This document shows positions 27,803-43,100 of a DNA stretch of 64,000 nt, in pieces. The stretch spans positions 744,001 through 808,000 of the forward strand of contig NZ_QAOU01000001.1 in the NCBI RefSeq assembly GCF_003050965.1. The letters are read 5' to 3'. The notes under the pieces are model-generated. The model was not told the DNA's origin. It was given only the letters and a program-made list of their open reading frames with translations, and searched no databases. This stretch comes from Nitrosospira sp. Nsp2 (GTDB lineage: Bacteria > Pseudomonadota > Gammaproteobacteria > Burkholderiales > Nitrosomonadaceae). Both the position numbers and the translations under genes were made by a program. Within the stretch, counting starts at the first letter, position 1; each line of letters begins with the position of its first letter.

Positions 27803-28700
27803 CAACGACCTGTTCCAAAAGACTGCCATGCATTTATGCAGTTCTCTGAGAAATCCTGCCCATCCGGCTATCCAGAATCATACTGCAGCTCCAGTAAGAC
27901 AGAAGTAGCTTACCAATACGTATCAGTATCGCTGCGGCAAGTAAGCCTGCTGCATACCCGCGCGCCCGAGCCGTGCTTGGCTGCCAACCCAACCCACGGT
28001 TCAGCAGCCAGTCCAGAGGAACGAGAAGATAGCCGCAAGTCATGCCAGTCGATTAGAAGCGAATTCTGGGGACGTCGTATGGGAGGCCTTTGCAATTGCC
28101 TTCTCCGATATATGAAAGCTGTTCAATAAAACTGGAACTGGCAGGGCTGCCACCCATACACAGGAACTATGAAGTGGCAACAAGTTTTCCTGTTTTCACC
28201 AGTGCCATGTAATTGGAGACCCCAGCCATGAAAATTGGCTGAGCCGTTCGCCTTGTGATGTACCAGGCAGCTTCTAACCATTCTCACCTGTCCATTCATA
28301 TCAGCACCGCCCGGTTCTGATAACTCGTCCTTCTCGGAACATAACCAGGTAAGCAAAACCCGCTCGTTTGGCCCGAAGTACGGGCGCTTCAGTGCGGCAC
28401 CTTATATCTGCGTCAATATGCCGCATGCGGCAATATGCCACATTCCTAATTTAAATCATTTGTTTTACAGTTGGTCCCCAGCCATATGACTTTTTGGAAT
28501 GGCGCAATGACTTTTAGTAGGGGCTCTCCAGCCATTTAGACGCGGCGCCACGACAACCGAAATGAATATTTCAAAAGTTTCCATGTTGACAGGAAAATGG
28601 AAAAAATTAATCGTTTTGCATAGTCTGGATTTTATGATCCAGACCAAACGGCAATGACGGGTTTCCGTTACCAGCCCGGCACTTCAAACGAATAAGAAAA
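27803..28700. other. Intergenic stretch before the TonB-receptor gene
   Basis: About 900 bp without a supported gene. Minus-strand frames (27834-28043, with a hydrophobic run YAAGLLAAAILIRIGKLLLS, and 28123-28356) do not match families I know and lack start signals; they may be decayed genes. The right half holds the tandem palindrome at 28409-28442 and an AT-rich leader of 260 bp up to the receptor start. Confidence 0.5.
28409..28442. promoter_or_regulatory. Tandem 17-bp palindrome, copy B
   Basis: TGCGTCAATATGCCGCA (28409-28425) and TGCGGCAATATGCCACA (28426-28442), spaced 17 bp; the second unit is identical to the second unit of copy A at 5416. It lies 258 bp before the TonB-dependent receptor that opens the sulfur-carrier cluster, so that cluster may share a regulator with the secreted and PEP-CTERM genes. 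Confidence 0.6.
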
Positions 28701-30644
28701 ATGAAAAGCAAGAATTACTCGGCAATCGTGTCATTCGCGATGTTAATAATGATTTTCCCCGGTTTAGCAATGTCACAGAGTACAACACCCTCTCCAAAAA
28801 CGCCGCTTTCTCCGGTTGTCGTGACGGCTAATCCGATTATTGATCGCGTCCGTATCGATCCTTTCTCCAGCACGTCCGCTGTGGTCACTGAGAGTCAGTT
28901 ACGTGACCAGAATGCATTCGATCTGGCGACTGCATTGCGACGTACCCCCGGGGTGCAGATATCACGTTACAACCCGGTCGGTGGTTTTGGTGGCGACCAA
29001 GGAGGTGCTGTCTATATTCGCGGGATGGGCGTGAGCCGTCCTGGCAGCGAAATCAAGACTTATATTGATGGCGTTCCATTCTATATGGGCGTCTGGAACC
29101 ACCCACTGCTCGACCTGTTGCCGGTCAATGGCATGCAGTCCATTACGGTCTACAAGAGCCCGCAGCCGCAAATCAACGGCAACAATTTCGCATCGATCAA
29201 TCTGGAAACCAAGCGTGCGTCCGACGATGGCGTACAGGCTAACGCAAGGATTTCCGGGGGCTACTTCAGTACTTTTATCGAGCAGGTGGATCTCGTCGGT
29301 CGCCGCGGAAACGTGGACTTTATGCTGGCACAAGGCCACGCTCAGTCAAATGGGCACCGGCCCAATGCGAGTGGGGAACTGAATAATGTAATGGGTCGTG
29401 GCGGTCTTCGGCTGAATGACAATTGGGCGGTTGGGACCAGCTTTTTGTATGTCACCAACCAGGCACGAGACCCAGGGGACAACCGTCTCCCATCCCCAGC
29501 CATTGCACCGCAATATATTACACAGGCGGGAATGGTATCTGCCTTCATATCCCATAAGCATGGCAACTGGCATGGCGATCTCCGTATTTACCACAACAGG
29601 GGTGAAGGCAACTGGCTGCATCAGGCCGGATTGGAAGGAAATCAGTTTAATAATTTCCAGATGACGGGCGTGCGCTGGAAAGAACAGTTCTCTCTATGGA
29701 AGGGAGGGGCTATTGTTGCCGGACTGGACAGCGACTGGGTCTCGGGCGAATCCCGATTCAATCGCGTAGCGCCGGCGCCGTCGGGCACCTTTAACTCGCC
29801 GACTTTCCGTGTTACATCGCCTTACATAGCGCTGAGCCAGAAGATCGACCTGGGTAAAAGCTGGTCGCTCGTCCCGGCGATTGGTATACGCGTTTATGAT
29901 CATAGTGAATTCCAGACAAAAACCTCGCCGCACGCCGGCCTATCCCTGATATCCGAGAGGATAACGATATTTGGCAATGTCTCGCGTGGCATCAATTATC
30001 CGGGTTTGGAAGCTCCCGTCCTGTCGTCTCTGATTCCCCCGCTCGGACAGACCTGGAAGCAGCTCTCCGCGGAAGAGCTCAATCATGCGGAAGTCGGTGT
30101 GAAGCTGACCCCCACGGAATCAACGCAAATCGATATCAGCGTATTTATCGATCAGGTGAAGAATCGTTATATCTTCGGCTTCCCGCCGAATGTGCCGCCC
30201 CCTCCCCAATTCATAAATCTCGGGACCTACGTTATGCGTGGCGCCGAAATTGCGATCCGACAAAATATTACCTCTGAGTGGACGATATTTGGGGGCTTGA
30301 CGCTGCTTGATCCTAGCATCGACAACTTGCCCTATACACCGAAGAGGGCCGTTACAGCGGGTATAAACGGGCAAATCGGCCCTGTCCGTCTCACGGTTGA
30401 TACCCAGTATCAATCAAGCGTATTGGCGCTCAGCCGTCCGCGGGCGGCGGGGGCCGTCAATACTGAGCAAGTGGATTCATTTGTGATCATGAATGCACGC
30501 GTATCTCATCGATTGCCAATACTCGGTAAAAGAGGGGAGATTTTCGTGGCCATGGAAAACCTCCTGGATGCGAACTATGCCTATCGCCCAGGTTATCCCA
30601 TGCCCGGGCGCTGGGGGCAGATCGGGCTATCCGCAAGCTTCTGA
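28701..30644 (+). CDS. TonB-dependent outer-membrane receptor
   Basis: A 647-residue receptor: signal peptide to about residue 25 (LAMSQS), a short linker with a TonB-box-like stretch (SPVVVTA, about 37-43), a plug domain (about 55-175: LATALRRTPGVQISRYN, VYIRGMGVSRPG, SITVYKSPQP) and a 22-strand-type barrel ending in a terminal Phe (GLSASF). Such receptors import siderophores, metal chelates or cobalamin using TonB energy. The substrate is not obvious. Its position just before the thiocarboxylate genes fits a metallophore receptor. The next gene begins 126 bp downstream. A tandem palindrome lies upstream. No extended N-terminal signalling domain is present. Confidence 0.9.
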   Translation: MKSKNYSAIVSFAMLIMIFPGLAMSQSTTPSPKTPLSPVVVTANPIIDRVRIDPFSSTSAVVTESQLRDQNAFDLATALRRTPGVQISRYNPVGGFGGDQGGAVYIRGMGVSRPGSEIKTYIDGVPFYMGVWNHPLLDLLPVNGMQSITVYKSPQPQINGNNFASINLETKRASDDGVQANARISGGYFSTFIEQVDLVGRRGNVDFMLAQGHAQSNGHRPNASGELNNVMGRGGLRLNDNWAVGTSFLYVTNQARDPGDNRLPSPAIAPQYITQAGMVSAFISHKHGNWHGDLRIYHNRGEGNWLHQAGLEGNQFNNFQMTGVRWKEQFSLWKGGAIVAGLDSDWVSGESRFNRVAPAPSGTFNSPTFRVTSPYIALSQKIDLGKSWSLVPAIGIRVYDHSEFQTKTSPHAGLSLISERITIFGNVSRGINYPGLEAPVLSSLIPPLGQTWKQLSAEELNHAEVGVKLTPTESTQIDISVFIDQVKNRYIFGFPPNVPPPPQFINLGTYVMRGAEIAIRQNITSEWTIFGGLTLLDPSIDNLPYTPKRAVTAGINGQIGPVRLTVDTQYQSSVLALSRPRAAGAVNTEQVDSFVIMNARVSHRLPILGKRGEIFVAMENLLDANYAYRPGYPMPGRWGQIGLSASF

Positions 30645-30770
30645 ACTGAGACTGATATGACTGAGCATTTAATTTAAGAGTGAAGGAAAGTACAAAAAAT
30701 TATTTTTGTCGGAAATGTATTAGTGCCCGATATAAGTGCCGAGCTTTAGGTTTAAAACATGGAGGTTTTA

Positions 30771-31943
30771 ATGCAACTGTTACCGTTAGTACGTCCTTCA
30801 GGAGAGCTAAGTAAAGATGAAATTGCTCGTTATAGTCGACATCTCCTCATTCCCGATTTCGGCCTGGAAGGGCAGAAATGTCTCAAGAACAGTAAGGTCC
30901 TGGTAATAGGCGCAGGTGGACTTGGCTCGCCCGTACTTCTCTATCTCGCGGCAGCCGGGGTTGGGACATTAGGAATTATTGATTTCGATATCGTCGACGA
31001 ATCGAACCTGCAAAGACAAATCATCCATGGGCAATCGGATGTCGGCCGTTTCAAATCCAGGAGCGCAAAGGACTCGGTCAATGAATTGAACCCTTATGTT
31101 CATGTTCAGCTTCATAACGAACGCCTGGAAGCAACTAATGCCATCGAGATAATTTCGGGCTATGACCTCGTTATAGACGGAACGGACAACTTCGCGACGC
31201 GGTATCTTGTGAATGATGCCTGTGTACTTGCAGGAAAGCCGTATGTCTGGGGATCAATCTTTCGGTTCGAGGGACAGGCTTCGGTTTTCTGGGAAAACGC
31301 GCCGGGCGGACTGGGCCTTAACTATAGAGACCTGTATCCCGAACCGCCTCCATCTGAAATGGCCCCTTCATGTGCCGAAGGCGGCGTACTAGGCATCCTT
31401 TGCGCTTCGATCGGCGCAATTATGGCGACCGAAGCAATCAAATTGATCACCGGCCTAGGTGAAACTTTGCTTGGCCGCCTCGCCGTTTACGATGCGCTGG
31501 ATATGACGTATAGATTCATTCCCCTGCGGCGGGCGCCGATAAGAACTCCTATAACGGGATTGATCGATTATCAGGAATTTTGCGGATCGGGGAAACCCGC
31601 TTCCGACAATAAAACAAATGTTCCGGTAATCAGTGCACTGGAATTGAAACAACTGCGGGAAAGCGGCATGGAGATGCAGCTCATTGACGTCCGAGGAATC
31701 GAAGAATGGAACATTGTTCGTATTGAAGGTGCAAACCATATTCCTAAAAACAAGATCATGACGGAAGAAACTTTATCCAGGCTGAATAAAGAGGATCTCA
31801 TCATCCTTCATTGCAAGATGGGCATGCGTTCCAGGGATGTTCTGACGGAAATGCAAAAACATGGCTTTACAAACGTAAAGAGCCTGGACGGAGGAATTCT
31901 GGCGTGGATAAGGGATGTGGACCGCTCATTGCCGAGCTATTAG
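30771..31943 (+). CDS. MoeZ-type adenylyltransferase/sulfurtransferase (E1-like plus rhodanese)
   Basis: This enzyme adenylates the C-terminal Gly of a ubiquitin-fold carrier and replaces AMP with sulfur to give a thiocarboxylate. The E1-like domain carries the nucleotide loop GAGGLGSP, the arginine segment NLQRQIIHGQSDVG, VIDGTDNFATRYLVNDAC, and Cys in APSCAEGGVLG. The rhodanese domain has the active-site loop HCKMGMRS. As in mycobacterial MoeZ, the paired CxxC zinc motifs of MoeB seem absent. I start at ATG 30771 because GGAGG lies five bases upstream (390 residues); an ATG at 30759 is in frame. Partners are the JAMM protease and the carrier downstream. MoeZ is the Mycobacterium comparison. 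Confidence 0.9.
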   Translation: MQLLPLVRPSGELSKDEIARYSRHLLIPDFGLEGQKCLKNSKVLVIGAGGLGSPVLLYLAAAGVGTLGIIDFDIVDESNLQRQIIHGQSDVGRFKSRSAKDSVNELNPYVHVQLHNERLEATNAIEIISGYDLVIDGTDNFATRYLVNDACVLAGKPYVWGSIFRFEGQASVFWENAPGGLGLNYRDLYPEPPPSEMAPSCAEGGVLGILCASIGAIMATEAIKLITGLGETLLGRLAVYDALDMTYRFIPLRRAPIRTPITGLIDYQEFCGSGKPASDNKTNVPVISALELKQLRESGMEMQLIDVRGIEEWNIVRIEGANHIPKNKIMTEETLSRLNKEDLIILHCKMGMRSRDVLTEMQKHGFTNVKSLDGGILAWIRDVDRSLPSY

Positions 31944-32123
31944 CTGAGCCGGCAAACGGTTACGGCTTTCACTTTTACTGACCTGGTCACGCAAGCATCA
32001 CATTTTTGCATTTCCCGAGACTCATACAGTATCGACAATCCGTCATGTTTAAAAAATCCCGTCTCTCCGGCACGAAAATTCTGTGTGTCATTCAATGAAC
32101 CTACTACTCAGGAGTTGAAAATT

Positions 32124-32567
32124 ATGCTGACCATACACGCCAAACTTGTTGAAGCGATGCTTGCTCAAGCACATAAAGATCACCCTATTGAAACCTGTGG
32201 AATCATCGCCGGACCCACCGGTTCAAATCTTCCGCTTCGCTTGATTCCGATGCGTAATGTAGCCCAATCGGAAACCTTTTTTAAATTTGACCCGCAGCAG
32301 CACCTTCAAGTGTGGAGAACAATGGAGATGCGAGGCGAGGAGCCCATTGTTATCTACCATTCGCATACCCATACGCAAGCCTACCCCAGCCGTACAGATG
32401 TCCAGTATGCAACGGAGCCGGCGTCTCATTACGTCATTATTCCTACAGGGCCGGCATATACAGAAGAGATCCGCAGCTTCCGCATCGTGGACGGGATGGT
32501 GACCGAAGAACGAGTCAGGATGTTGGGTTCCTATAAAACAGAATGGGAACTGTCGATGGTTGCCTAG
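32124..32567 (+). CDS. Mec+-like JAMM/MPN zinc metallopeptidase
   Basis: A 147-residue JAMM protease. The zinc signature is complete: Glu23 (ETCGIIAG), then His79-Ser-His81, Ser89 and Asp92 in HSHTHTQAYPSRTD. The following DVQYATEPASHYVIIPT and SFRIVDGMVTEERV closely resemble Mycobacterium Mec+, which cleaves cysteine from the CysO carrier. In quinolobactin biosynthesis the related QbsD trims a C-terminal dipeptide from its carrier to expose Gly-Gly. The neighbouring carrier here has 11 residues after its Gly-Gly, so it is the likely substrate. Start: AGGAG nine bases before ATG 32124. Confidence 0.92.
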   Translation: MLTIHAKLVEAMLAQAHKDHPIETCGIIAGPTGSNLPLRLIPMRNVAQSETFFKFDPQQHLQVWRTMEMRGEEPIVIYHSHTHTQAYPSRTDVQYATEPASHYVIIPTGPAYTEEIRSFRIVDGMVTEERVRMLGSYKTEWELSMVA

Positions 32568-32628
32568 TTGTATAACCCGCGCAACAAACCGAGCCGATTT
32601 ATACGTATCCCCAAGGGAAGGACGAAAA

Positions 32629-33120
32629 ATGAGTAAATCAAGAGCCGTCGCGTTACTTGTCGCTGTTTTGCTGTCAGGGATATCAATGTTTGCCGGAGCC
32701 CACGATGAAGCATATTTCGATTCCAGGGAATCGGCGCACGGTGGGCAAACGCGAATGGCTGGCCCTTACCACCTGGAGCTCGTCGCCAAGGATAAGGAAA
32801 TCGTGCTCTATGTAATGGATCATGCAGACCGTCCGTTGAGCACCGAGGGGGGCGGTGGCAAGGCAAACGTTCAAATCGGCAAGGGCAAGGATAACACCTC
32901 TATCAAGCTGGAACCGGAGGGTGAAAACCTGCTAAAGGGTAAAGGGGATTTTTCTGTCACTCCCCAGACAGTGGTCACAGTATTCGTTGACCTTCCCGGA
33001 CAGGAAGTCACGACCGCCCGCTTTATCCCGCTCAAGGCCACGGCCAAGACTGCCAGGAAACAGAACGCCGCCAAGCCCCAGGCCGGCAGCAAGAACGGAC
33101 ATGACCACCATCACATGTGA
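32629..33120 (+). CDS. Small secreted protein, HGGQ/GPYHLELV family, His-rich end
   Basis: A 163-residue paralogue of the protein at 5576. It has a Sec signal peptide (cleavage near FAGAHDEA), the conserved block HGGQTRMAGPYHLELV and EIVLYVMDHADRPL, a VNQI-type middle region rich in lysine, and a C terminus NGHDHHHM. Both paralogues keep a DFSVTP/DFSITP-VTVFV pattern. The family is unknown to me; the His tails and context suggest metal binding in the periplasm. It sits between the JAMM protease and carrier genes. AAGGA precedes the ATG at 32629; the frame extends upstream to 32560 without a matching start. It lacks the CsoR-like site seen before its paralogue. Confidence 0.8.
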   Translation: MSKSRAVALLVAVLLSGISMFAGAHDEAYFDSRESAHGGQTRMAGPYHLELVAKDKEIVLYVMDHADRPLSTEGGGGKANVQIGKGKDNTSIKLEPEGENLLKGKGDFSVTPQTVVTVFVDLPGQEVTTARFIPLKATAKTARKQNAAKPQAGSKNGHDHHHM

Positions 33121-33229
33121 GGTTTGACCAATCGTAATGGAGCGTCAACTTGAGTTGAAGCCGGTTTCCGCAAGCTCGCCTCTACCGTAGTTTTCGGGTT
33201 TTGTGATCATAAATCGAAAAGGAATAGCT

Positions 33230-33535
33230 ATGCCTATCACCGTAAATGTCCCAACCATACTCAGACCGCTCACCAATAATCAGAAGCGGATTGAAATTTC
33301 TGGTGTCAACGTTCTCGAAGTCATCGATCAAATAGAGCACCAGTACCCTGGCGTGAAGGAAAGACTGATAACCGACGGGATGGCACACAGTTTCATCAAT
33401 ATCTACGTAAACGATGACGACATTCGTTTTGGTAAAGGGTTATCAACAGAATTGCGAGATGGCGATTCGCTGACCATTTTGCCCGCTGTCGCCGGGGGGC
33501 AAGCCGAGCCTGTTCGCGCTCCACATATAAGATGA
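33230..33535 (+). CDS. CysO/MoaD-ThiS-type sulfur-carrier protein with extended C terminus
   Basis: A 101-residue ubiquitin-fold carrier resembling Mycobacterium CysO: MPITVNVPTILRPLTNNQKR at the start, INIYVNDDDIRF in the middle, and LTILPAVAGG near the end. CysO stops at its Gly-Gly; here Gly89-Gly90 is followed by QAEPVRAPHIR. It would need trimming before the E1-like enzyme can adenylate it, as for QbsE in thioquinolobactin synthesis. The upstream JAMM protease is the natural candidate. Start: AGGA six to seven bases before ATG 33230. Its stop overlaps the next gene (ATGA). A short inverted repeat TCAACT/AGTTGA lies upstream at 33145-33158. Confidence 0.93.
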   Translation: MPITVNVPTILRPLTNNQKRIEISGVNVLEVIDQIEHQYPGVKERLITDGMAHSFINIYVNDDDIRFGKGLSTELRDGDSLTILPAVAGGQAEPVRAPHIR

Positions 33536-35424
33536 ATATGAACCGTACCTTAACCGGTTGCGGGATAACCGGTCCATTAGATGGTCATGGTCCGGAGTTC
33601 GCTGCTATCGCATCCTCACTGCTTTACCAGTCCACCGCACTGGGTATGCACATTGAGTCGAGCAAAAGCCCTGCGGAAAATCGCGCCCTATCTTTTGAAT
33701 TCAGGACCCCGCATACCCGGCCTGTCGTATGCGTCGTGGATAATTGGAGCGACGCATCCAGGCAAGCGTTTGCGACTGAAAATATTATGCAGGCGGCATG
33801 TGGGCTTATGTCGGTTCATGGTCGAGCAAGCGGCAAATATCGGCCTCTGGGGTTGAACTACGTCTCGACCTTAACGGCCGCGCTGGCGCTTCAAGGTGGA
33901 GCTGCGGCTTCAATCGGTCAGCTGCGCGGTCTGCCCATACGGCACAGCAGCGTTTCGATGGCAGCGGCAGCGCTATTAAGTCTGGGACAGTATATAGCGG
34001 GAGCAACAGCGTGCGAGTCTCCGGAAGTACTGTTGCCGGACAACAGCGCCCATACCCCCTGTCTTCCCCTGGTTTCGTCGGACGGTATCATCTTTGAACT
34101 CGAAACCCTTGATGTCGGTCCTTGGCAGAAATTCTGGACCGAGGTCGGTGTGAGTTCAACAGTGGCCGGCAAGGGATGGGCCGCTTTTCTGCTGCGATAT
34201 GCTAAAGCCATATCTCCTCTGCCTGATGAACTAGTCAGCGCGATATCAAATCTCGCTTACCAGCATATTTCACAAATATGTGCTCGTACTGGCATGTCAA
34301 TCTGTCCCATACGATCCATTGATGACAGAGCGAAGGATGACGACTGCAGGCACGTGTGGCTCCAGGGACCCTGGGAATTCCTTTACGAGAGAAGTCCGGA
34401 CAGCAGGGCATCAACCCGGGCCAGTGGTGACCTGCCGTTAAGCGGGCTTACCGTCATAGAATCCTGTCGGCGAATTCAAGGTCCTCTCGCGGGACATCTT
34501 CTCGCACTTCTGGGCGCAACAGTTATCAGGATCGAGCCGCCGGGTGGAGACCCGCTGCGAGGTATGCCGCCAATGGCGGAGGGTTGCTCGGCACGATTCC
34601 ATGCGCTTAACCGTCTTAAAACTATTCAGGAAGTGGATATCAAGTCTCCAGTTGGACAAGCGAAAATCAAGGAATTGGTGCGGGATGCGGATGTGTTTCT
34701 GCACAACTGGGCACCCGGTAAAGCGGTGCTGTTAAATCTGGACGATGAAGACCTGGCTGCGGTTAATCCTTCCTTGATTTATGCCTACGCCGCGGGTTGG
34801 GCAACAGACAGGGCGGCTCATTGCCCCTCGAACTCAAGACCCGGCACGGATTTCATGACTCAAGCCTACTCCGGGGTTGCCAGAAAGATCGCGGACACTT
34901 CAGGGAATCATGGCGGCTCTCTATTTACGGTATTGGATGTACTCGGAGGGGTGGTTGCAGCCCAGGGGATTACCATCGCACTGCTTAATCGTTATATGAA
35001 TAAGGTTGGTGCGAAAGTCACTTCATCGTTGATGAGCGCCGCCACGCTTCTGTGTGCGGATGATTTCCGTGAGGTATATAACCTGCCCACTACTCTCAAA
35101 ACCTCAAAAAGTATTATCGACAAGATCTATGACACCAAGCAGGGAAAAATCGCCGTTGAATGTTGCAACGTAGCAACGTTAATGCGATTAGCTGAGGCTC
35201 TTGAAATTGAAACTGATACTGAAACGGCCGATTTTGAGGAGCACCTGGACTCTTTGTTCCGGTCAAGAACCGCTACTGAATGGGCTGAAGTGCTGGAAGA
35301 TGCATGCGTTCCTTCAGCTGTGGTTATCGAAAACCTGGCTGACCTGCAGAACATAGCATATCTGCAGCCGGGCTTGAGTCCTGGCTCTTATACGAGCGTG
35401 AATTCTCCCTGGAGTTTTAGATGA
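33532..35424 (+). CDS. Tandem CaiB/BaiF-type (family III) CoA-transferase
   Basis: A 630-residue protein. The C-terminal half (about 300-600) is a recognisable family III CoA-transferase: LPLSGLTVIESCRRIQGPLA, GATVIRIEPPGGDPL, FHALNRLKT and PGTDFMTQAYSGVA, with Asp440 in the position of the catalytic Asp. The N-terminal half repeats only the second part of that fold: ATENIMQAACGLMSVHG then LTAALALQGGAAA, without the CoA-binding start or the Asp. The family normally forms interlocked homodimers, so this may be a fused pseudodimer with one active site. It would attach or move CoA on a carboxylic acid. It overlaps both neighbours by 4 bp. Confidence 0.82.
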   Translation: MNMNRTLTGCGITGPLDGHGPEFAAIASSLLYQSTALGMHIESSKSPAENRALSFEFRTPHTRPVVCVVDNWSDASRQAFATENIMQAACGLMSVHGRASGKYRPLGLNYVSTLTAALALQGGAAASIGQLRGLPIRHSSVSMAAAALLSLGQYIAGATACESPEVLLPDNSAHTPCLPLVSSDGIIFELETLDVGPWQKFWTEVGVSSTVAGKGWAAFLLRYAKAISPLPDELVSAISNLAYQHISQICARTGMSICPIRSIDDRAKDDDCRHVWLQGPWEFLYERSPDSRASTRASGDLPLSGLTVIESCRRIQGPLAGHLLALLGATVIRIEPPGGDPLRGMPPMAEGCSARFHALNRLKTIQEVDIKSPVGQAKIKELVRDADVFLHNWAPGKAVLLNLDDEDLAAVNPSLIYAYAAGWATDRAAHCPSNSRPGTDFMTQAYSGVARKIADTSGNHGGSLFTVLDVLGGVVAAQGITIALLNRYMNKVGAKVTSSLMSAATLLCADDFREVYNLPTTLKTSKSIIDKIYDTKQGKIAVECCNVATLMRLAEALEIETDTETADFEEHLDSLFRSRTATEWAEVLEDACVPSAVVIENLADLQNIAYLQPGLSPGSYTSVNSPWSFR

Positions 35425-37091
35425 ATCACTCGGGCATCGTAGACATGGTTCCTGCTGAAGTTCGCCGCGAGTGGACTCTAAATGGGATCTATCCAAATAA
35501 ATCCGTATACGAGCTGTTTTGCGAACATGTATGTCAGAACCCTGACAGCCCTGCGGTTGTATCGTTTGATGAGACGATCACTTACGCAGCACTATTAGAC
35601 AGGGTGCGTCGTCTTGCAGCCAGCTTCAAAGCAGTGGGAATTGTTTCCGGAGATGTCATCGCTTATCAACTCCCGAATGGTTGGCAGAGTTGCGCGATCG
35701 ATCTCGCTGCCGCTGCAATAGGAGCGATTGTGGCACCGTTCCCCCCAGGGCGTGGGCGCCTTGAAATTGTGTCATTGCTAAGACGGTGCGCCGCGCGCGT
35801 AATTATTGTTGAGCATGAATACGCCGGGGTTGACCTCTGTGAACTTATTGAGTCAATACGCCCAATTCTGCTGTCGCTCCGTGTTCTCGTCGTGGACGGA
35901 AAAGAGCGAAACGGGTGGCACACGATGGATAGCTTGTTTGGAGCCGAGCCGATTGAATCAAGCCAATTACCCACCGTTTCCCCTGACTTCCCCGTTCGGC
36001 TGCTCATCTCGTCCGGAACAGAATCCGAGCCAAAGTGGGTTGCTTATTCCCACAACGCGCTGATTGGCGGACGAGGACGTTTTCTGCAACGAATACACGT
36101 CGATGGTAGTGCTTTCAGGGGCCTCTATCTGGTGCCGCTGGGCACGGCGTTCGGTTCAACCGCAACATTCGGGGTTTTATCCTGGCTCGGCGGAGTCGTT
36201 GTTCTGCTGCGTCAATTCGACGTCGCCGCTGCCATTCAAAGTATTGCCGAATTGAAGCCGACCTACATCTTTGGTGTTCCCACCATGTTCCAACGCATCG
36301 CCGCTGATCCGGCATTATCAAAAGCGGATACGTCCAGTCTGATCGCTATTATTAGCGGTGGAGCGAAAATTGATGAAACGTCAATCCGACGATGTACCGA
36401 GGCGTTTCGATGTGGCTTTATCAGTTTATACGGATCTGCGGATGGTGTTAATTGCCACACCACCCTTCATGATGATTTGGAAGCGGTTTCTTGCAAGGCA
36501 GGGAGGCCTAACCCGGAGGTTTGCTCTATCCGGATAGTAGATGACGAGAAGAAGGAGGTTCCCCAAGGTTGTGTCGGAGAAATAGCTGCCAGAGGTCCGA
36601 TAAGTCCTATGCAATATGTGAATGCTCCTGACCTGGATGCGCTATATCGAGACGCGGATGGCTGGGTTTTTACCGGTGACCTTGGTTTTATCGATGATGA
36701 TGGGTATCTGGTGCTATCCGGGCGCAAGAAAGACATCATTATTCGCGGTGGTCTCAATATCAGTCCTGCCCAAATCGAAAACATCGCCGTTTCCCATCCG
36801 GCTGTTGTCAGCGCTGCCTGTGTACCTGTAGCCGATCCGGACGTTGGCCATCGGGTTTGCCTTTGCCTGGCATTGAAGGATGGGATTGAACGTCCATCGC
36901 TATCCCAATTCACTCGTTACTTGCATGAGAAGGGCCTGGATACGAACAAATTGCCGGAATATTTGCGCTATTACCGCCAACTGCCCCTCAGTCCGGCAGG
37001 AAAAATCGATAAGAAGCGCTTATCCGCCGAGGTGGAGTTCAGCAACTACACGGCCAAAGCTGGCCTTGCCCAATTGGCGAATCAATTGTGA
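35421..37091 (+). CDS. AMP-forming acyl ligase (ANL superfamily)
   Basis: A 556-residue adenylating enzyme that activates a carboxylic acid as acyl-AMP. Motifs: the phosphate loop LISSGTESEPKWVAYSH (variant of SGTTGxPK), YGSADGVNC, GWVFTGDLGFIDDDGYLVLS, GRKKDIIIRGGLNISP, and the lysine end PLSPAGKIDKKRL. The substrate is not obvious. In PDTC and thioquinolobactin clusters a related ligase activates the carboxylate before sulfur transfer from the carrier; the analogy is inference. Start: GGAG seven bases before ATG 35421. Overlaps of 4 bp with both neighbours indicate a single translational unit. Confidence 0.9.
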   Translation: MNHSGIVDMVPAEVRREWTLNGIYPNKSVYELFCEHVCQNPDSPAVVSFDETITYAALLDRVRRLAASFKAVGIVSGDVIAYQLPNGWQSCAIDLAAAAIGAIVAPFPPGRGRLEIVSLLRRCAARVIIVEHEYAGVDLCELIESIRPILLSLRVLVVDGKERNGWHTMDSLFGAEPIESSQLPTVSPDFPVRLLISSGTESEPKWVAYSHNALIGGRGRFLQRIHVDGSAFRGLYLVPLGTAFGSTATFGVLSWLGGVVVLLRQFDVAAAIQSIAELKPTYIFGVPTMFQRIAADPALSKADTSSLIAIISGGAKIDETSIRRCTEAFRCGFISLYGSADGVNCHTTLHDDLEAVSCKAGRPNPEVCSIRIVDDEKKEVPQGCVGEIAARGPISPMQYVNAPDLDALYRDADGWVFTGDLGFIDDDGYLVLSGRKKDIIIRGGLNISPAQIENIAVSHPAVVSAACVPVADPDVGHRVCLCLALKDGIERPSLSQFTRYLHEKGLDTNKLPEYLRYYRQLPLSPAGKIDKKRLSAEVEFSNYTAKAGLAQLANQL

Positions 37092-38281
37092 AAACACAAC
37101 CGCGCTGTATGGAATTGGCGCGATCCCTTTCGGTAGAGGTGAGAGGCTTCGTCGATGAGCAAATCCTTCCCCATGAACCAATGTTGGCCGATGGCGGAGA
37201 TCTGGCGGCCGGATTGCAATCCGAGCTTACCGAAAAAGCCCGATCTGCCGGGCTGTGGGGCTTGTTTTACCCATTGTCTCATGGCGGAAAGATGGCATCG
37301 CTTGAAGAGTACCTTATTGTTGCGGAACAGGAAGGGCGTTCGGAATTCTCTCCGGCAATTCTTGGGAGCCATTCCGCATTGGACGCGCATATGCTCCTGG
37401 AATTTGGTACCAACGAAATCCGTAAAAATTTCCTTGAACCAATGGCGGCCGGGAAAGCCGTTCCGGCTTACGGGATGACTGAGCCGGGACATGGCGGATC
37501 GTTCCCCGGCTTGATATCGACGACCGCACAGTTCGAAAACGGGAATTGGACGATCAACGGCAGAAAATGGTTTGTTGGCAACGCAGACCGCGCCACTTTT
37601 GTTACGGTCCTGGCACGCACCGCCGGGGAAGATTTGCCGCTCGGCAAGTCACACTCCATGATTCTGGTCCCGACAGATACACCCGGATACAAGGTCGAGC
37701 GCCAAATCTCGATATTGGGTCGTTTCCTCGGTCAGGGCGAGATGTCTTTCACAGAGGTCGAAGTCCCTGAGAGCAACCTCTTGGGATCCAGTGGCGGCGG
37801 GATGGATTTGATGAGCCGACGCCTTCGAAGGGGGAGGCTGCTACGCTCGATGAATTGGATAGGACTGGCCCAACGATGTTTCGATCTCATGGGCGCCCGG
37901 ATAAATTCCGGCCGTGGCCTCTCGGCGCGACTGCATGAAAAGCAACTGGTCCGCCAACACCTCGTCACGGCGTACCAATCCATAGCAAGTGCGAGGGAAT
38001 TGATTCGAGTCGCTGCCCGCGGCGTTGACGGGGGATGTCCAAATGATGTCCAGATCAATGTCGCGAAAATCGCTGCGTCGCAAGCACTTTGCATTGCCTC
38101 GGACTCGGCAGTGCAAATCTATGGCGCGGAAGGCATTAGCGATCTTACCCCGCTCTCCGGCATTTATAGAATTGCCCGGACGTCACGCATTCTGGACGGT
38201 ACCGACGAGTCCCTTGTCAGCTCAGTGGGGCGCCGGCTCATCAATTTCTTTAAAGAAGAAGACACCTATCACTTTGCCTGA
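37088..38281 (+). CDS. Acyl-CoA dehydrogenase family flavoenzyme
   Basis: A 397-residue protein of the acyl-CoA dehydrogenase fold, FAD-bound: AYGMTEPGHGGSFPGLISTT and FENGNWTINGRKWFVGNADR in the beta domain, then QIYGAEGISDLTPLSGIYR in the C-terminal helices. Where the medium-chain enzyme has the catalytic Glu in YEGT, this protein has ILDGTDES (Asp near residue 370), similar to the ADGPDE pattern of ACAD10/11-type members. It would oxidise a CoA-bound acid at the alpha-beta bond or a related position. Start GTG at 37088 overlaps the ligase stop (GTGA); no ribosome-binding site of its own. An MFS transporter follows after 99 bp. Confidence 0.87.
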   Translation: MKTQPRCMELARSLSVEVRGFVDEQILPHEPMLADGGDLAAGLQSELTEKARSAGLWGLFYPLSHGGKMASLEEYLIVAEQEGRSEFSPAILGSHSALDAHMLLEFGTNEIRKNFLEPMAAGKAVPAYGMTEPGHGGSFPGLISTTAQFENGNWTINGRKWFVGNADRATFVTVLARTAGEDLPLGKSHSMILVPTDTPGYKVERQISILGRFLGQGEMSFTEVEVPESNLLGSSGGGMDLMSRRLRRGRLLRSMNWIGLAQRCFDLMGARINSGRGLSARLHEKQLVRQHLVTAYQSIASARELIRVAARGVDGGCPNDVQINVAKIAASQALCIASDSAVQIYGAEGISDLTPLSGIYRIARTSRILDGTDESLVSSVGRRLINFFKEEDTYHFA

Positions 38282-38380
38282 TCCCATGGTTGCCGATCTG
38301 TCGAAATTTTTCTACGAATTGGGGTCTGGCTTCGCGGCTCGGACGAGGGGCGCCCCTCTCCCGACGGGATCAGGTTATAA

Positions 38381-39598
38381 GTGCAAGGCATGATGGCTAT
38401 CTGGTTTCGCGTTGTACTGGTTCTTGCCATGGCCATGCCCATGCTGGTTTTATATGCAATCAGCGCGCTCGGGCCATTCCTGACACTGGACCTTCATTTC
38501 AAGCCCGAGTTACTCGGCTACCTGTTAATGAGTTCGTTCGGTCTGGCAGCCGTTTTATCGCTATGGGCAGGTGCGTTCGTCGATCGGGTTGGTACGCGTT
38601 ATTCGCTGATCGTACTTTTCTCGACTATTGCATTTGCGTTCACCCTGATCGCAACGGTCCAAAATTTTTATGGTCTGCTGGCCGCCACCGCTATTTGCGG
38701 GATCGCTCAGGCTCTCGCAAATCCGGTAACAAATTTACTGATCACGCAACAAGTTCCCGCGGAGAAAAAAGCAAAAGCTGTGGGGCTGAAACAAGCTGGA
38801 GTTCAGCTCGCGGCTCTCTTCGCGGGTCTGGTGCTCCCAGGCATTGCATTACGATATGGCTGGCCGACCGCATTCGGGCTGATTGTTCCGGTGGCAGTGT
38901 TACTCGGTATAGCGGCCCCGCTCTTTACGCCCGGGAAACATAGCGGAACAAACAGGGGCTTCTCGCTCTCGCCTCCAAATTCGCTGTTAATGTGGTTAAT
39001 CGTTACCCAGTTTTGCGTTGGCGTTTCGCTCTCTGCTTTTGTCACGTTTTTACCAACTTTTGCCGCCCGGCAAGGTATGCCGCTATCGCTGGCTGGCTCT
39101 CTAATTGCCGTTTTCGGTGTTATGGGAGTGATTTCCCGGATTGTATTGACACCAATAGGGGCAAAACTTAAAGACGAGTCGGCTCTTTTGCTGTTACTGA
39201 TCGCTATTGCGGCTTGCGCAATAGCAGTGACGATGCACGCCGATCTGGAAAATCATTGGCTGTTATGGATAGGGGCCGCAAGCATGGGGCTTACCGCGGC
39301 AGGCACGAACGCAATAGCGATGAGCATGCTGGTAAGGGACCCGAAATTTGGTCCGGTAACGATCACATCCGGATATGTCTCGGTTGGATTCTTCAGCGGT
39401 TTTGCACTGGGTCCGCCGCTTTTCGGCGTTTTGTCGAGTTCTTCCCCGGATATGTCGTCTGGGTGGGTCGTGCTCATTGGCGTGCTCATGGCCGCGTGCC
39501 TCACGGTACTGGCGCTCGCCTCTGCCCGTCGACGGAAGACTCAGGCGTTAGCAGTTGCAGCCAGCCACGGCCAGCGTACTTCCACCGTGAAGATGTAA
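38381..39598 (+). CDS. MFS transporter, 12 helices
   Basis: A 405-residue major-facilitator transporter with about 12 hydrophobic segments and no signal peptide. Motif-like sequences include AGAFVDRVGTRYSL between helices 2 and 3 and AIAMSMLVRDPKFGPVTITS late. The family handles many small molecules; its place after the acyl-CoA dehydrogenase and near the TonB receptors fits export of a product or import across the inner membrane, but direction is not predictable. GTG 38381 follows CAGG with a six-base gap; ATG 38390 is an alternative. Its last 51 bp overlap the convergent hydrolase gene. Confidence 0.85.
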   Translation: MQGMMAIWFRVVLVLAMAMPMLVLYAISALGPFLTLDLHFKPELLGYLLMSSFGLAAVLSLWAGAFVDRVGTRYSLIVLFSTIAFAFTLIATVQNFYGLLAATAICGIAQALANPVTNLLITQQVPAEKKAKAVGLKQAGVQLAALFAGLVLPGIALRYGWPTAFGLIVPVAVLLGIAAPLFTPGKHSGTNRGFSLSPPNSLLMWLIVTQFCVGVSLSAFVTFLPTFAARQGMPLSLAGSLIAVFGVMGVISRIVLTPIGAKLKDESALLLLLIAIAACAIAVTMHADLENHWLLWIGAASMGLTAAGTNAIAMSMLVRDPKFGPVTITSGYVSVGFFSGFALGPPLFGVLSSSSPDMSSGWVVLIGVLMAACLTVLALASARRRKTQALAVAASHGQRTSTVKM

Positions 39599-40369
39599 AA
39601 ATGTCAGGATTTCACGAACGAATAAATCGGGTGCGCTTCGCATCGCGCTGTGCTGTTGTCCCTTGAGAACCGCAGTCTGACTGGGAGATAGGGATCGATG
39701 AAGCATCTCGGCGATAAGGTGGCGGCGATGTGGGCTTTCGCCGCCAAGGAGGAGCAGGGCCGGAATTCCGAGCGCGGTGAAACGGTTCGGTTCAAAAGTG
39801 TAATGGCTGATACTCCGCAATTCGCGATGAATCGTATGAGCAGCGGCCAGGCGTCCTGGCCAGCTCGGTCCCGCTTGCAGGGCAGCAAGCTCATGGGGCG
39901 GTGATTTGACGATTTCGCGAAAAAAAAACAGAAGCGCTTCTTCCCGGTTTCCTGAATCGAGCAGGGCTTGCAGGTGTGTGTCGAATTCAGGCGACCAACC
40001 GCTGCCAGCAAGCGAAATGGACGGTTCGTAGAGGAGAAGCGAGTCAATGTTGGAGGTCAGAAGTGCCGCTTCCAGGGCACACAGCCCTCCAAAAGAATGT
40101 CCGAGAAGATGCACCGGCTGGCCTATGGCGTCAATGACAGCGGCGATATCTTCGCTTTCGCGCTCAAGAGCGTAGTCGTGGCGGTCGCCGCTGCGTCCGC
40201 GTCCTCGCCGATCAATGGTCCAGACGCAGAAGTGCTGTTCGAGCGCGGCCAATACCGGGGACCACGCAAAGTGATCTCCAGACGTGCCATGCACAAGTAA
40301 CAAGGGTCTACCGGCGCCGCTACGCCAACACGCGATGGGAACCCCATCCTTGGAGGAAATGAATTCCAT
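39548..40369 (-). CDS. Alpha/beta hydrolase
   Basis: A 273-residue alpha/beta hydrolase: PLLLVHGTSGDHFAW with the oxyanion loop, IDRRGRGRSGDRHDYALERE, and the nucleophile elbow GHSFGG (Ser in VHLLGHSFGG). The acid (Asp or Glu) and His are in the expected C-terminal half (LKGQQHSAM holds the likely catalytic His). No signal peptide. The substrate is unknown; a thioesterase or ester hydrolase in the cluster is plausible. It is convergent with the MFS transporter, overlapping it by 51 bp, so it is transcribed against the main operon. No ribosome-binding site is clear. Confidence 0.85.
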   Translation of the reverse strand: MEFISSKDGVPIACWRSGAGRPLLLVHGTSGDHFAWSPVLAALEQHFCVWTIDRRGRGRSGDRHDYALERESEDIAAVIDAIGQPVHLLGHSFGGLCALEAALLTSNIDSLLLYEPSISLAGSGWSPEFDTHLQALLDSGNREEALLFFFREIVKSPPHELAALQAGPSWPGRLAAAHTIHRELRSISHYTFEPNRFTALGIPALLLLGGESPHRRHLIAEMLHRSLSPSQTAVLKGQQHSAMRSAPDLFVREILTFLHLHGGSTLAVAGCNC

Positions 40370-40434
40370 GATTGCCCAGATTGTAGATTCTTTGCGCGGA
40401 AAAACAAGACTCGCTGGAAGGTAAGAATTTAAAC

Positions 40435-41946
40435 GTGGTGAAAGTTAATCATCAGAAATGGTTGCAATCGTTAATTCTGTGGGTGTCAGCCGCCATCATA
40501 TTTATATTTCTAACCAGCGATGCCTGGGCCGGGGACGGGAGCAAGCCACTAGGTCATATCAATCCATACCTGCGCACGACCGGCGAGCTTTACGGCAGCT
40601 ACGAGGCATGGGATTTCTTTCGCCCAAGCCCCGCAATAAACAATGACAATTCCTATGATTTGTGGGCGTTGCGAGCCAGGCTTGGTGCATTGCTCACTAC
40701 TTCATATGTTGACGGTTATGCGCAAGCCCAATATGTCGGTTTATACGATCTCCCGAATGATGCGGTCGCGTCCCCCGGCGGCCCGCTTGGCCTCGGCGCC
40801 GCCTATTTCCAGGCAAATCAATCCACCAATGTGAGTAATATTTTTTTAAGGCAGGCTCATCTTGACTTCAAATTCAGTTCGCTGGGCGTTCCGGGAGCGT
40901 TTCTGAAGATTGGCAGATTCGAATTTATGGATGGCATGGAATACAAGACGGGCAATGAGAAATTCGACAGCCTTAAAAGATCTCGTGTCGCTCAGCGTCT
41001 TCTGGCCTCGAATATTGTCCATGTGGGTCGAACCTTCGACGGATTTGCGGCGGTTTATGATCAAGCCGGCTTCAATATGACAATGACCGCTACTCGCCCA
41101 ACTCAAGGCGGCTTTACTGCCGAAGGACAAAGCCAGATCAGCGATATCAACCTGTTCTATGCGGCGGTAACGAGTAAGAAGGATGTACTGTTGCCCGGAA
41201 CCGAAGGCCGGATTTTCTATGTGAACTACGATGACAAGCGCAACACGCAGGTTGTGGATAATCGCGCCGCCGCCGATCGGCCCCGTCTTGACAGTCAAAA
41301 CCTGAATATCCATACCGTTGGCGCACACTTGCTGGCGCTTCATCAACTGAAAGGGGGCAGCGCAGACGCTTTACTTTGGGGGGCCTACCAGTTCGGCGAT
41401 TGGACAAATCAGAAGCATCAAGCCTGGGCCTTCGCTGCAGAGGCAGGTTATCAATGGTCTGATGCAGCCTTCAAGCCATGGCTCCGCGCGCTCTACTTTG
41501 TCAGCTCAGGCGACGATGACGCGGCGGACCTGAAGCATAAAACTTTCTTTTCCCTCCTTCCAAATGGCCGCGGCTATGTCAAATTCCCTTTCTACAATCT
41601 GATGAATATGCAGGATGCGTACATACAGCTGAATTTGTCGCCCACCCCGCAAACCAGGGTAACAATAGACCTGCATCATCTGTCGCTCACCAGTTCCAGC
41701 GATCTGTTCTATAAGGGACTGGGTCCTACGATGAAATCGGGAGCCTTTGGCTATTCGGGGCAGTCTTCCGCGGGCAGTAGCGATGTAGGTCAATCGCTTG
41801 ACATCAGTTTCACGCATACCCTTACAAAAGCCTTATCGTGGAGATTCTATTACGGGCACGCGTTCGGTGGCACTGTCCTCAGAAGCATTTATCAGGGGAA
41901 AAAAGACGCAGACATGGTCTACCTGGATTTCAACCTCGTATTTTGA
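40435..41946 (+). CDS. Outer-membrane porin of the alginate-export (AlgE-like) type
   Basis: A 503-residue protein with a signal peptide (about 1-32, ending DAWAGD) and then a beta-rich body in which aromatic-ended strands alternate (SYDLWALRARLGALLTTSYV, LDFKFSSLGVPGAFLKIGRF, WRFYYGHAFGGTVLRSIY) up to the terminal Phe (FNLVF). The fold matches alginate-export-domain porins, including channels for sugars and small anions. It starts at GTG 40435 (AAGG further upstream). The next gene, a GH88-like hydrolase, begins 8 bp after its stop, so the two are probably co-expressed. Confidence 0.82.
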   Translation: MVKVNHQKWLQSLILWVSAAIIFIFLTSDAWAGDGSKPLGHINPYLRTTGELYGSYEAWDFFRPSPAINNDNSYDLWALRARLGALLTTSYVDGYAQAQYVGLYDLPNDAVASPGGPLGLGAAYFQANQSTNVSNIFLRQAHLDFKFSSLGVPGAFLKIGRFEFMDGMEYKTGNEKFDSLKRSRVAQRLLASNIVHVGRTFDGFAAVYDQAGFNMTMTATRPTQGGFTAEGQSQISDINLFYAAVTSKKDVLLPGTEGRIFYVNYDDKRNTQVVDNRAAADRPRLDSQNLNIHTVGAHLLALHQLKGGSADALLWGAYQFGDWTNQKHQAWAFAAEAGYQWSDAAFKPWLRALYFVSSGDDDAADLKHKTFFSLLPNGRGYVKFPFYNLMNMQDAYIQLNLSPTPQTRVTIDLHHLSLTSSSDLFYKGLGPTMKSGAFGYSGQSSAGSSDVGQSLDISFTHTLTKALSWRFYYGHAFGGTVLRSIYQGKKDADMVYLDFNLVF

Positions 41947-41954
41947 GAAGCCTT

Positions 41955-43100
41955 ATGCATCTAATGAAAGAAGGAAGCAGCAACGAACAGGCACAGATGC
42001 TGAGCCGGGAAGAAGTGCTAAAGGCGCTTGAGTCGTTAATTCGTCGCATGGACACCATTGACGCTCAGTGCAAGGATGGTTTTCCGCTTTATTCCCCAGG
42101 ATCTACGGACCAATGGACCGTCTCTCCGGGAGGTTCGTGGGTTGGCGGCTTCTGGAGCGGATGGTGGTGGCTGCGCGCGCGAGTCACGGGGTCAATATCG
42201 GATAAATGCAAAGCTGCCGAAATCTGCGCGCGCTTGTCGTCCAAGATCGCCGCCGATTCCATCAATCGCTGCCAGATTTTCTGGTATGGCGCGGCGCTCG
42301 GGAATCTCTGGTTCGGCGACATCAGCGCGCGCTCGTTGGTCGAAGAATCCATCGCAGCGATCGGGGCCTCCTACGATCGAAAAATCAATTGCATTCCGCT
42401 TGGTACCGGCATGGGTGGAGGACGGGAAGGAAATCAATGCGTCACGATAGACACGCTTGCGTCCTTGATCCAGCTTCTCAACCGCGGCGAGCACAGCGTC
42501 TATCCTTATATCTCGCGCTGTCATGCCGATACCATACTGGATACCTGCTTTACCAAGAACGGGGCGTTTCATACAGCGGCACACCTCCGCGCTGCGCGTC
42601 TAAGAGCAACCGATCGGGCGGGTATGTGGTCTCGCGGTCAAGCGTGGGGAATGTTGGGATTAAGTCGAGCCGCAGCGCAATGGGGCGAGCCCTACCTGAC
42701 TTATGCCCAATCCGCATGTCACTACTGGCGGCAGTCGCGCCATAACCTGCTGGCGCCCAACCGGTTGGATGATCCGTCCGGTCCTCCCGATCCTTCGTCT
42801 TCCGTGATCGCATCCCTGGCAATGCTGGTCCTGGCCGATCTTGTGCCTGACGGGGATGAATGGCGTCTCTACGCCCATCAGCAGATTACCGCGGTCACTC
42901 TCAGCCGGTACTTCATCGGCTTCGAGGAAAATCACGGCCGGGAAAAATATAAAGAGGGGAAAGCCCAGGGAATATTTTGGGGCTGTTGTTACAAAACCAA
43001 TCGTGGACACGATGAACTGGTCGAGTCGGCATGGGGCAGTTTTTTGCTCATGGCGGCGCTCTGCGTTCTAGCCGATATCATCGAGCCAAGCGATTGCTAG
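41955..43100 (+). CDS. GH88-like (unsaturated uronyl hydrolase-type) glycoside hydrolase
   Basis: A 381-residue alpha6/alpha6-barrel protein without a signal peptide. It shows GH88-like features: WVGGFWSGWWWLRARVTGS, RGQAWGMLGLSRAAAQWG, and a C-terminal GCCYKTNRGHDELVESAWGS. In GH88 enzymes two Asp act as catalytic residues on unsaturated glucuronyl oligosaccharides; I cannot map them with confidence. The start at ATG 41955 is chosen because it is 8 bp after the porin stop; the frame extends upstream inside the porin gene. The pair could process an imported sugar. A glycoside hydrolase in an otherwise autotroph-like neighbourhood is notable. Confidence 0.68.
   Translation: MHLMKEGSSNEQAQMLSREEVLKALESLIRRMDTIDAQCKDGFPLYSPGSTDQWTVSPGGSWVGGFWSGWWWLRARVTGSISDKCKAAEICARLSSKIAADSINRCQIFWYGAALGNLWFGDISARSLVEESIAAIGASYDRKINCIPLGTGMGGGREGNQCVTIDTLASLIQLLNRGEHSVYPYISRCHADTILDTCFTKNGAFHTAAHLRAARLRATDRAGMWSRGQAWGMLGLSRAAAQWGEPYLTYAQSACHYWRQSRHNLLAPNRLDDPSGPPDPSSSVIASLAMLVLADLVPDGDEWRLYAHQQITAVTLSRYFIGFEENHGREKYKEGKAQGIFWGCCYKTNRGHDELVESAWGSFLLMAALCVLADIIEPSDC

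What the first reader, a model, noticed from the sequence alone, without database searches (positions are those of the whole stretch)
28701..39598. A thiocarboxylate-forming gene cluster with a CysO/Mec+/MoeZ core, likely for a new metallophore
Seen: a TonB receptor, MoeZ-type E1-rhodanese, JAMM protease, ubiquitin-fold carrier, CoA-transferase, AMP-forming ligase, acyl-CoA dehydrogenase and MFS transporter in one direction; carrier, CoA-transferase, ligase and dehydrogenase genes overlap by 4 bp each. Known: this protein set makes thiocarboxylates, in cysteine synthesis (CysO/Mec+/MoeZ with CysM) and in pyridine-2,6-dithiocarboxylate and thioquinolobactin biosynthesis. Inference: with no CysM nearby but with a ligase, CoA-transferase, dehydrogenase and TonB receptors, the product is a small sulfur-bearing metal chelator rather than cysteine. 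No precursor-supplying gene (kynurenine or dipicolinate pathway) is visible, so the scaffold would be new.
Basis: partly seen in the sequence, partly recalled or inferred. Interest (0 to 1): 0.93.

Follow-up and report, generated by a model that had tools for sequence, protein, structure and literature searches.

The report
PDTC-type metal-chelator genes in ammonia oxidiser
This soil ammonia-oxidising bacterium carries a gene cluster that most likely makes a sulfur-bearing metal chelator of the same type as a known Pseudomonas compound, and a shared DNA control site ties it to an outer-membrane receptor of the copper-transporter family.

Summary
In detail: all eight named genes are there, in one direction, with the three 4-bp overlaps. 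The host is a Nitrosospira.

"Thiocarboxylate metallophore" is supported; "new scaffold" is not. The order E1-JAMM-carrier-CoA-transferase-ligase equals pdtF-G-H-I-J, and dehydrogenase, MFS and UGL follow in the same order in Pseudomonas loci that match the published pyridine-2,6-dithiocarboxylate (PDTC) cluster; the ligase is 63-67% identical to theirs. PDTC needs no local precursor gene if, as recalled, its skeleton comes from the lysine pathway. A 2006 paper already listed Nitrosomonas europaea, and "Nmul", for this operon type.

New here: the ammonia oxidisers have their own version (other receptor, porin, amidohydrolase) and tandem 17-bp palindromes upstream in 14 of 14 Nitrosospira/Nitrosovibrio loci, a close pair in 8 of 9 Nitrosomonas-type loci. 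The tandem pattern occurs at four places in this genome; one precedes a PEP-CTERM operon ending in a TonB receptor closest to the copper transporter OprC. No convincing Fur box was found. A copper or zinc role is plausible but unproven.

The parts
28409..28442 (.). two abutting 17-bp palindromes TGYGRCANNNTGYCRCA, putative operator of the cluster
   Evidence: 2-3 tandem copies (up to 2 mismatches each) upstream of the TonB gene in 14 of 14 loci; 4 distinct tandem places in the own genome, reversed-pattern control 0
28701..30644 (+). TonB-dependent receptor (TonB1), candidate importer of the metal complex
   Evidence: present in 13 of 13 genus relatives; only one weak PDB match
30759..31943 (+). 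E1 (ThiF) + rhodanese, PdtF/MoeZ type; rhodanese Cys352
32124..32567 (+). JAMM/Prok-JAB peptidase, PdtG/QbsD/Mec+ type; Glu and HSH-x7-SxxD motif present
   Evidence: the only Prok-JAB match in the genome
32629..33120 (+). His-rich small protein with putative signal sequence, no Pfam or NCBIfam match; paralogue at 5576-6070
33230..33535 (+). ThiS/MoaD/CysO-like sulfur carrier, ...AVAGG plus an 11-residue tail
33532..35424 (+). [quoted passage not shown] catalytic Asp440
35421..37091 (+). acid:CoA ligase, PdtJ type
37088..38281 (+). acyl-CoA dehydrogenase, ACAD11-like, Asp at the catalytic-base position
38381..39598 (+). MFS transporter, probable exporter
39548..40369 (-). alpha/beta hydrolase, accessory (7 of 13 relatives)
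40435..41946 (+). Alginate_exp-type outer-membrane channel (11 of 13 relatives)
41955..43100 (+). GH88 unsaturated-glucuronyl-hydrolase-like enzyme, eighth core gene, also in the Pseudomonas loci
   Evidence: (TM 0.80 to UGL)
43158..44456 (+). amidohydrolase with putative signal sequence (by eye) and a His-rich loop
44551..48260 (-). linked by motif, not by synteny: two PEP-CTERM proteins (47439-48260, 46715-47356) and an OprC-like TonB receptor (44551-46602)
48367..48400 (.). second tandem motif place (a related pair lies at 48545-48576)
5399..5432 (.). third tandem motif place, upstream of the paralogue of the His-rich protein (5576-6070)

Best explanation
A pdt-type operon of an ammonia oxidiser that makes a pyridine (mono- or di-)thiocarboxylic acid, probably PDTC itself or a close analogue, exports it, and takes its metal complex back through a TonB receptor. 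Proposed steps: the rhodanese domain collects sulfur as a persulfide; JAMM exposes the carrier's C-terminal GG; the E1 domain adenylates it and forms the carrier thiocarboxylate; the ligase turns a dipicolinate-type acid into its CoA ester; the two-domain CoA-transferase swaps CoA for the carrier's sulfur through Asp440; the dehydrogenase aromatises a dihydropyridine precursor; the UGL-like protein acts on a ring double bond (the least certain step). MFS exports; TonB1 and the porin bring the complex back; His-rich proteins handle the metal. Shown by sequence: gene content, order, motif residues, conservation, shared upstream motif. Inferred: substrate, product, metal, transport direction, regulator.
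For: Domain order equals PdtF-G-H-I-J (names in PMC1779556 Table 1; order pdtCKPELMFGHIJON over 14 loci in PMC3570484). In 18 of 18 Pseudomonas/Advenella loci the same genes run on through dehydrogenase and MFS, and a UGL-like gene follows (match over half the query in 17; split hits in L068); ligase 63-67%, E1 60-69%. L047 reads TonB-methyltransferase-MFS-PigD-like-PigE-like-F-G-H-I-J-ACAD-MFS-UGL. Dihydro-methyl-alkyl-pyrroles, what PigD/PigE-type enzymes would give (recalled), are reported from F113 (the three named ones from F113 alone of four strains; other members of the same network cluster from all four) and earlier from P. putida DSM 3601, a PDTC strain by a cited title. Asp440 in 44 of 44. 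Carrier fused in frame to the CoA-transferase in one relative, L034. The genome has one other ThiF match and two other ThiS matches, so this set looks dedicated.
Against: No compound is known to me from any Nitrosospira. No characterised pdt sequence (strain KC, F113) was at hand, so 'L047 = pdt' rests on order, gene count and the alkylpyrroline match. PdtK, P, E, L and M counterparts are absent from the conserved block; in the own genome PdtL gave no match (a search without positive control) and PdtM only aminotransferase matches. TonB1 has no relative over half its length beside 18 of 18 Pseudomonas/Advenella loci (flanks of at most 10 kb, which cut the receptor in L047). Ligase pocket positions aligned to DhbE His234/Asn235 are Thr/Ala here and Ser/Ser in Pseudomonas, so the substrate need not be identical. 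N. europaea was reported unable to produce siderophores, with a CAS assay (PMC3050691 passage), although another strain of that species carries the cluster (L041).
Confidence: 0.62

Rival explanations
1. The cluster makes a thiocarboxylate on a scaffold other than dipicolinate.
For: The AOB block lacks counterparts of PdtL, PdtM and PdtP and carries other accessory genes; CoA-transferase identity to Pseudomonas is only 45-50%; two ligase pocket positions differ.
Against: Ligase 63-67% identical overall; dehydrogenase, MFS and UGL kept in the same order; PigD/PigE-like genes are explained by a separate alkylpyrroline product.
Confidence: 0.2
2. A thiocarboxylate is made mainly as a toxin or redox agent against competitors, and the receptor serves salvage rather than metal nutrition.
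For: [quoted passage not shown] a dedicated MFS is present.
Against: A TonB receptor heads the block in 13 of 13 genus relatives, and the shared motif stands before an OprC-like receptor operon and a His-rich protein.
Confidence: 0.1
3. The E1/JAMM/carrier set serves cysteine synthesis or protein conjugation, with ligase, CoA-transferase and dehydrogenase degrading an acid.
For: The carrier's two best PDB matches are 4n6e_B and 3dwg_C, the latter being CysO (recalled); the E1 is closest to the MoeZ model.
Against: No cysteine synthase among the 26 of 46 window ORFs of at least 120 aa scanned with Pfam; two-domain CoA-transferase with the thioacid-cassette Asp; transporters in the block.
Confidence: 0.05

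Closest known systems
pdt cluster (pyridine-2,6-dithiocarboxylic acid), Pseudomonas
   Same: Order E1-rhodanese, JAMM, carrier, two-domain CoA-transferase, ligase, then dehydrogenase, MFS, UGL-like; ligase 63-67% identical
   Different: No PdtE-type importer, methyltransferase, PigD-like or PigE-like gene in the conserved block and a different receptor; instead TonB1, porin, amidohydrolase and an upstream motif seen only in Nitrosomonadaceae loci
Operon type 4a of Iyer et al. 2006 (PMC1779556)
   Same: Lists Neur and Nmul with PdtF, G, H, I, J homologues under siderophore biosynthesis (passages seen)
   Different: The passages seen name no dehydrogenase, UGL, transporters, control motif or metal for it; the whole text was not read
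Thioacid cassette PtmA3/PtmU4 (PMC6006322)
   Different: Substrate is a platensimycin aryl acid; carrier and JAMM genes lie outside its cluster
qbs cluster (thioquinolobactin)
   Same: Same sulfur-transfer logic; capped carrier processed by QbsD (passage)
   Different: Xanthurenate skeleton (passage); no kynurenine-pathway gene among the scanned ORFs here; no qbs sequence was compared
OprC (copper TonB transporter), for TonB2
   Same: All six distinct PDB sequences matched at E<=1e-10 are OprC, best 1.3e-73; best NCBIfam model TIGR01778, 346 bits
   Different: Below the TIGR01778 cut-off of 472; OprC's CxxxM copper pair (recalled) is not matched, its HxM pair (recalled) is

Membership tests
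pdt-type thiocarboxylate cluster | E1-rhodanese, JAMM, carrier, CaiB-type CoA-transferase, AMP ligase together | tested here: met
   names from PMC1779556
pdt-type thiocarboxylate cluster | same gene order as pdtFGHIJ and the genes that follow | tested here: met
   18 of 18 Pseudomonas/Advenella loci through the MFS. That these loci are pdt is itself inferred
pdt-type thiocarboxylate cluster | PDTC receptor and importer (PdtK, PdtE; roles recalled) | tested here: not met
   TonB1 finds no relative beside 18 of 18 Pseudomonas/Advenella loci within flanks of at most 10 kb; one MFS only in the conserved block
pdt-type thiocarboxylate cluster | PdtL/PdtM (PigD/PigE-like) | tested here: not met
   (no positive control); by inference these make alkylpyrrolines, not PDTC
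pdt-type thiocarboxylate cluster | product PDTC | not testable with these tools
   needs culture chemistry
[quoted passage not shown]
CysO/Mec+/CysM cysteine pathway | cysteine synthase CysM linked to carrier and JAMM | tested here: not met
   none among the 26 of 46 larger window ORFs scanned; the rest and the genome were not searched
GH88 unsaturated glucuronyl hydrolase | UGL fold | tested here: met
   pLDDT 90.5; 2fv0_A, TM 0.80
GH88 unsaturated glucuronyl hydrolase | both catalytic Asp (D88, D149 of Bacillus UGL; roles recalled) | tested here: not met
   D149 aligns with Asp166, invariant in 17 of 17; D88 aligns with Gln here
OprC-type copper receptor (TonB2) | TIGR01778 above cut-off | tested here: not met
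   346 of 472 bits

The most novel reading that the evidence does not exclude
Ammonia-oxidising bacteria make a thiocarboxylate chalkophore (or zincophore), a small-molecule counterpart of methanobactin, that feeds copper to ammonia monooxygenase, under a dedicated unidentified regulator that binds tandem 17-bp palindromes and also controls an OprC-like receptor, PEP-CTERM proteins and His-rich proteins.
Probability: 0.25. Interest if true: 0.85.

Novelty: new variant of a known kind. Interest (0 to 1): 0.55.

Why it matters
N. europaea is described as making no siderophore (passage). A conserved pdt-type operon in 35 of 125 genomes of the family searched, without a convincing Fur box and sharing its control element with a copper-family receptor operon, would explain how some ammonia oxidisers compete for metal, and says which metals to test. 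It also adds two conserved genes (ACAD11-like dehydrogenase, UGL-like enzyme) to the likely PDTC-type pathway, and suggests that PdtL/PdtM of Pseudomonas make alkylpyrrolines.

Tried and rejected
Fur box upstream of TonB1, MoeZ and JAMM in 14 loci (42 stretches): best sites 6-9 mismatches of 19, mostly within the range of 50 shuffles each; one stretch (upstream of MoeZ in L024, 6 mismatches) beat all its shuffles, and its relatives do not share it. Methanotroph link as evidence for copper: it looked striking, but the two families searched hold the gene in 3 of 237 and 1 of 248 genomes, counts that include the genomes used as centres, against 2 of 398 including the own genome in a phylum sample; too weak to use, and the AOB enrichment may be one ancestral gain. 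Three of the four methanotroph genomes are MAGs and may be misbinned. Of the five genomes behind L069, L039, L057, L047 and L041, the AMO family rang in two (L069, L057) and not in N. europaea L041, so a miss there says little. TonB2 as part of the cluster by position: rejected. CusR/CopR-type copper box for the motif: considered from memory only; arm spacing differs. Structure of the His-rich protein: pLDDT 55.5 from three sequences, not used. A plasmid search gave one partial 41% match. My label GH88 began as a guess from memory and was then tested. Papers: of the ten opened I saw passages only; the others are search listings. Statements that something is not in print rest in an open-access library.
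Full report
What is there. The window lies in a 3.46 Mb genome. The eight genes of the finding are confirmed, with the three 4-bp overlaps. The JAMM gene probably starts at ATG 32124, and a His-rich protein (32629-33120) sits between JAMM and carrier. Comparison with 13 same-genus relatives shows a conserved unit 28701-44456: TonB receptor, E1, JAMM, CoA-transferase, ligase, dehydrogenase, MFS, UGL-like gene and amidohydrolase in 13 of 13, porin in 11, alpha/beta hydrolase in 7, His-rich protein in 1 (ORFs of at least 120 aa, 45% identity or more). The carrier, too short for that call, is in 13 of 13. Of the other ORFs printed (starts 20000-60000), one has neighbours: the PEP-CTERM gene 47439-48260, in 2 of 13. 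The stretches held reach only about 3-5 kb upstream of the TonB gene, so the upstream border is less well tested than the downstream one.

Distribution. 13 of 21 same-genus relatives plus the own genome have the full-length CoA-transferase; 35 of 125 genomes of the family at E<=1e-80, own included; 2 of 398 in a phylum sample, own included, at E<=1e-60. Named loci (44 loci) are Nitrosospira/Nitrosovibrio (10), Nitrosomonas (7), two MAGs named only Proteobacteria that fall among Nitrosomonas in the tree, five loci of four methanotroph genomes, Ralstonia, Rugamonas, Pseudomonas (16) and Advenella (2). A tree of E1, CoA-transferase and ligase (window and 42 of 44 loci) puts the AOB together (support 0.97), with Methylobacter and Methylococcales just outside, and Pseudomonas/Advenella apart.

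Why pdt. Iyer et al. 2006 name PdtF (E1-rhodanese), PdtG (JAB), PdtH (ThiS-like), PdtI (CaiB-like), PdtJ (AMP ligase) and list Neur and Nmul for this operon type (PMC1779556, passages; I read Nmul as Nitrosospira multiformis). The P. fluorescens F113 PDTC cluster is written pdtCKPELMFGHIJON, 14 loci (PMC3570484, passage). The Pseudomonas locus L047 reads TonB end, methyltransferase, RhtX/FptX-like MFS, PigD-like, PigE-like, then E1, JAMM, carrier, CoA-transferase, ligase, dehydrogenase, MFS, UGL-like. With pdtC, which lies outside the stretch held, this makes 14; the published string has 13 letters for 14 loci. Independent support: PigE-like is far over its cut-off (1429 against 850 bits); PigD-like is under its cut-off (663 against 950); dihydro-methyl-alkyl-pyrroles, the kind of product these enzymes give in prodigiosin synthesis (recalled), are reported from F113 and earlier from P. 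putida DSM 3601 (PMC7415375, passage). The three named ones came from F113 alone of four strains; three other members of the same network cluster came from all four. A cited title ties DSM 3601 to PDTC. So PdtL/PdtM probably make a second product, and their absence from the window does not speak against PDTC. Window against the 18 Pseudomonas/Advenella loci: ligase 63-67%, E1 60-69%, dehydrogenase 47-57%, CoA-transferase 45-50%.

Chemistry. Residues: rhodanese Cys352; JAMM Glu and HSH-x7-SxxD; CoA-transferase Asp440 in the GTDF motif in 44 of 44 sequences covering it (L070 is cut), the counterpart of PtmU4 Asp430, whose change cut activity 125-400-fold (PMC6006322, passage). The dehydrogenase is closest to ACAD11 and has Asp where most family members have Glu (recalled), as ACAD11 has. 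In DhbE, His234/Asn235 contact the ortho-hydroxyl acid (recalled); here the aligned residues are Thr/Ala, in Pseudomonas Ser/Ser: against an ortho-hydroxy acid, compatible with a pyridine acid, but also a difference between the two groups. The UGL-like protein has the UGL fold (TM 0.80), keeps one catalytic Asp (166) and lacks the other. The carrier ends at GG in 35 of 43 relatives and is extended in 8 and in the window, one of the 8 (L034) being an in-frame fusion to the CoA-transferase; yet JAMM is found in 43 of 44 loci (the exception, L043, is a cut contig). JAMM may then do more than trim, for example free the carrier from adducts as Mec+ does (recalled). In the close relative L027 the carrier stops right after GG, so the window's tail looks like a lost stop codon.

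Metal and control. No convincing Fur box was seen. Upstream of the TonB gene stand two or three abutting 17-bp palindromes TGYGRCANNNTGYCRCA in 14 of 14 loci (up to 2 mismatches each; the consensus was read from these sites). In Nitrosomonas-type loci two copies 15 bp apart precede the E1 gene in 8 of 9, one copy in the ninth (L041); none of the 25 other loci of L035-L070 outside Nitrosospira/Nitrosovibrio has a pair. In the window there are 12 matches with up to 2 mismatches against 2.9 expected. In the whole genome the tandem pattern with up to 3 mismatches is found at four distinct places, reversed-pattern control 0; 400 kb of a relative hold no pair and no perfect single site. The other three places are: before a paralogue of the His-rich protein (5576-6070, 55% identical); before an operon of two PEP-CTERM proteins and an OprC-like receptor (48260 to 44551); and before what looks like a decayed copy of that operon on contig 2. 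The PEP-CTERM link recurs: in L021 and L022 a homologue of the first PEP-CTERM protein (56% and 54%) lies next to the cluster with its own motif about 100 bp before it, one site in L021 and a pair in L022. No OprC-like gene is in the stretches held of these relatives, so the receptor link is one genome deep. The receptor matches OprC at 1.3e-73 but is under the TIGR01778 cut-off and lacks the CxxxM pair (recalled) while keeping the HxM pair. The amidohydrolase has 9-15 His within 40 residues in 16 of 18 relatives, 7 in Methylobacter and 5 in Methylosinus; the window has 11. PDTC is tied to iron and zinc transport in Pseudomonas (PMC7374359, passage). All this fits copper or zinc rather than iron alone, but is indirect.

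Against. The motif's regulator is unknown, no product is known, and a CAS assay on N. europaea was negative, which argues against an iron siderophore there but equally against any strong chelator under those conditions.

Verdict. A real, conserved metallophore-type operon of the PDTC kind in ammonia oxidisers: core in print since 2006; accessory genes and control element not seen in the passages and listings searched.

Noticed in passing
L047:2792-7761 and L059:2540-7593: PigD-like and PigE-like genes (prodigiosin MAP pathway) stand where pdtL and pdtM are expected; they probably make the alkyl-dihydropyrroles reported from PDTC-associated Pseudomonas.
   Followed up: partly
L034:9692-11902: The sulfur carrier reads in frame into the CoA-transferase in N. 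multiformis Nl18, a natural hint at direct sulfur hand-over.
   Followed up: partly
window 33500-33535: Carrier C-terminus extended by 11 residues after GG; in the close relative L027 a stop codon follows GG directly.
   Followed up: yes
window 5399-6070: Tandem palindromes before a paralogue of the cluster's His-rich protein.
   Followed up: partly
G000 contig 2, 629278 onwards (L103, L105): Three motif copies before a frame-broken PEP-CTERM gene followed by a remnant resembling a TonB receptor end, apparently a decayed copy of the 48260-44551 operon.
   Followed up: partly
L021:2989-3903 and L022:15291-16245: Homologues of the PEP-CTERM protein 47439-48260 lie next to the cluster in two relatives, each with the same palindrome about 100 bp before the gene.
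   Followed up: yes
window 15844-17703: Fusion of a thioredoxin/DsbA-like domain to a Na+/H+ antiporter.
   Followed up: no
L020:10730-11701: Two adjacent JAMM copies, both 82% identical to the window's, in one relative's cluster.
   Followed up: no
L046:16390-19476: Rugamonas cluster has a TonB1 homologue (66%) but only a distant (25%) dehydrogenase hit, lying after it.
   Followed up: no
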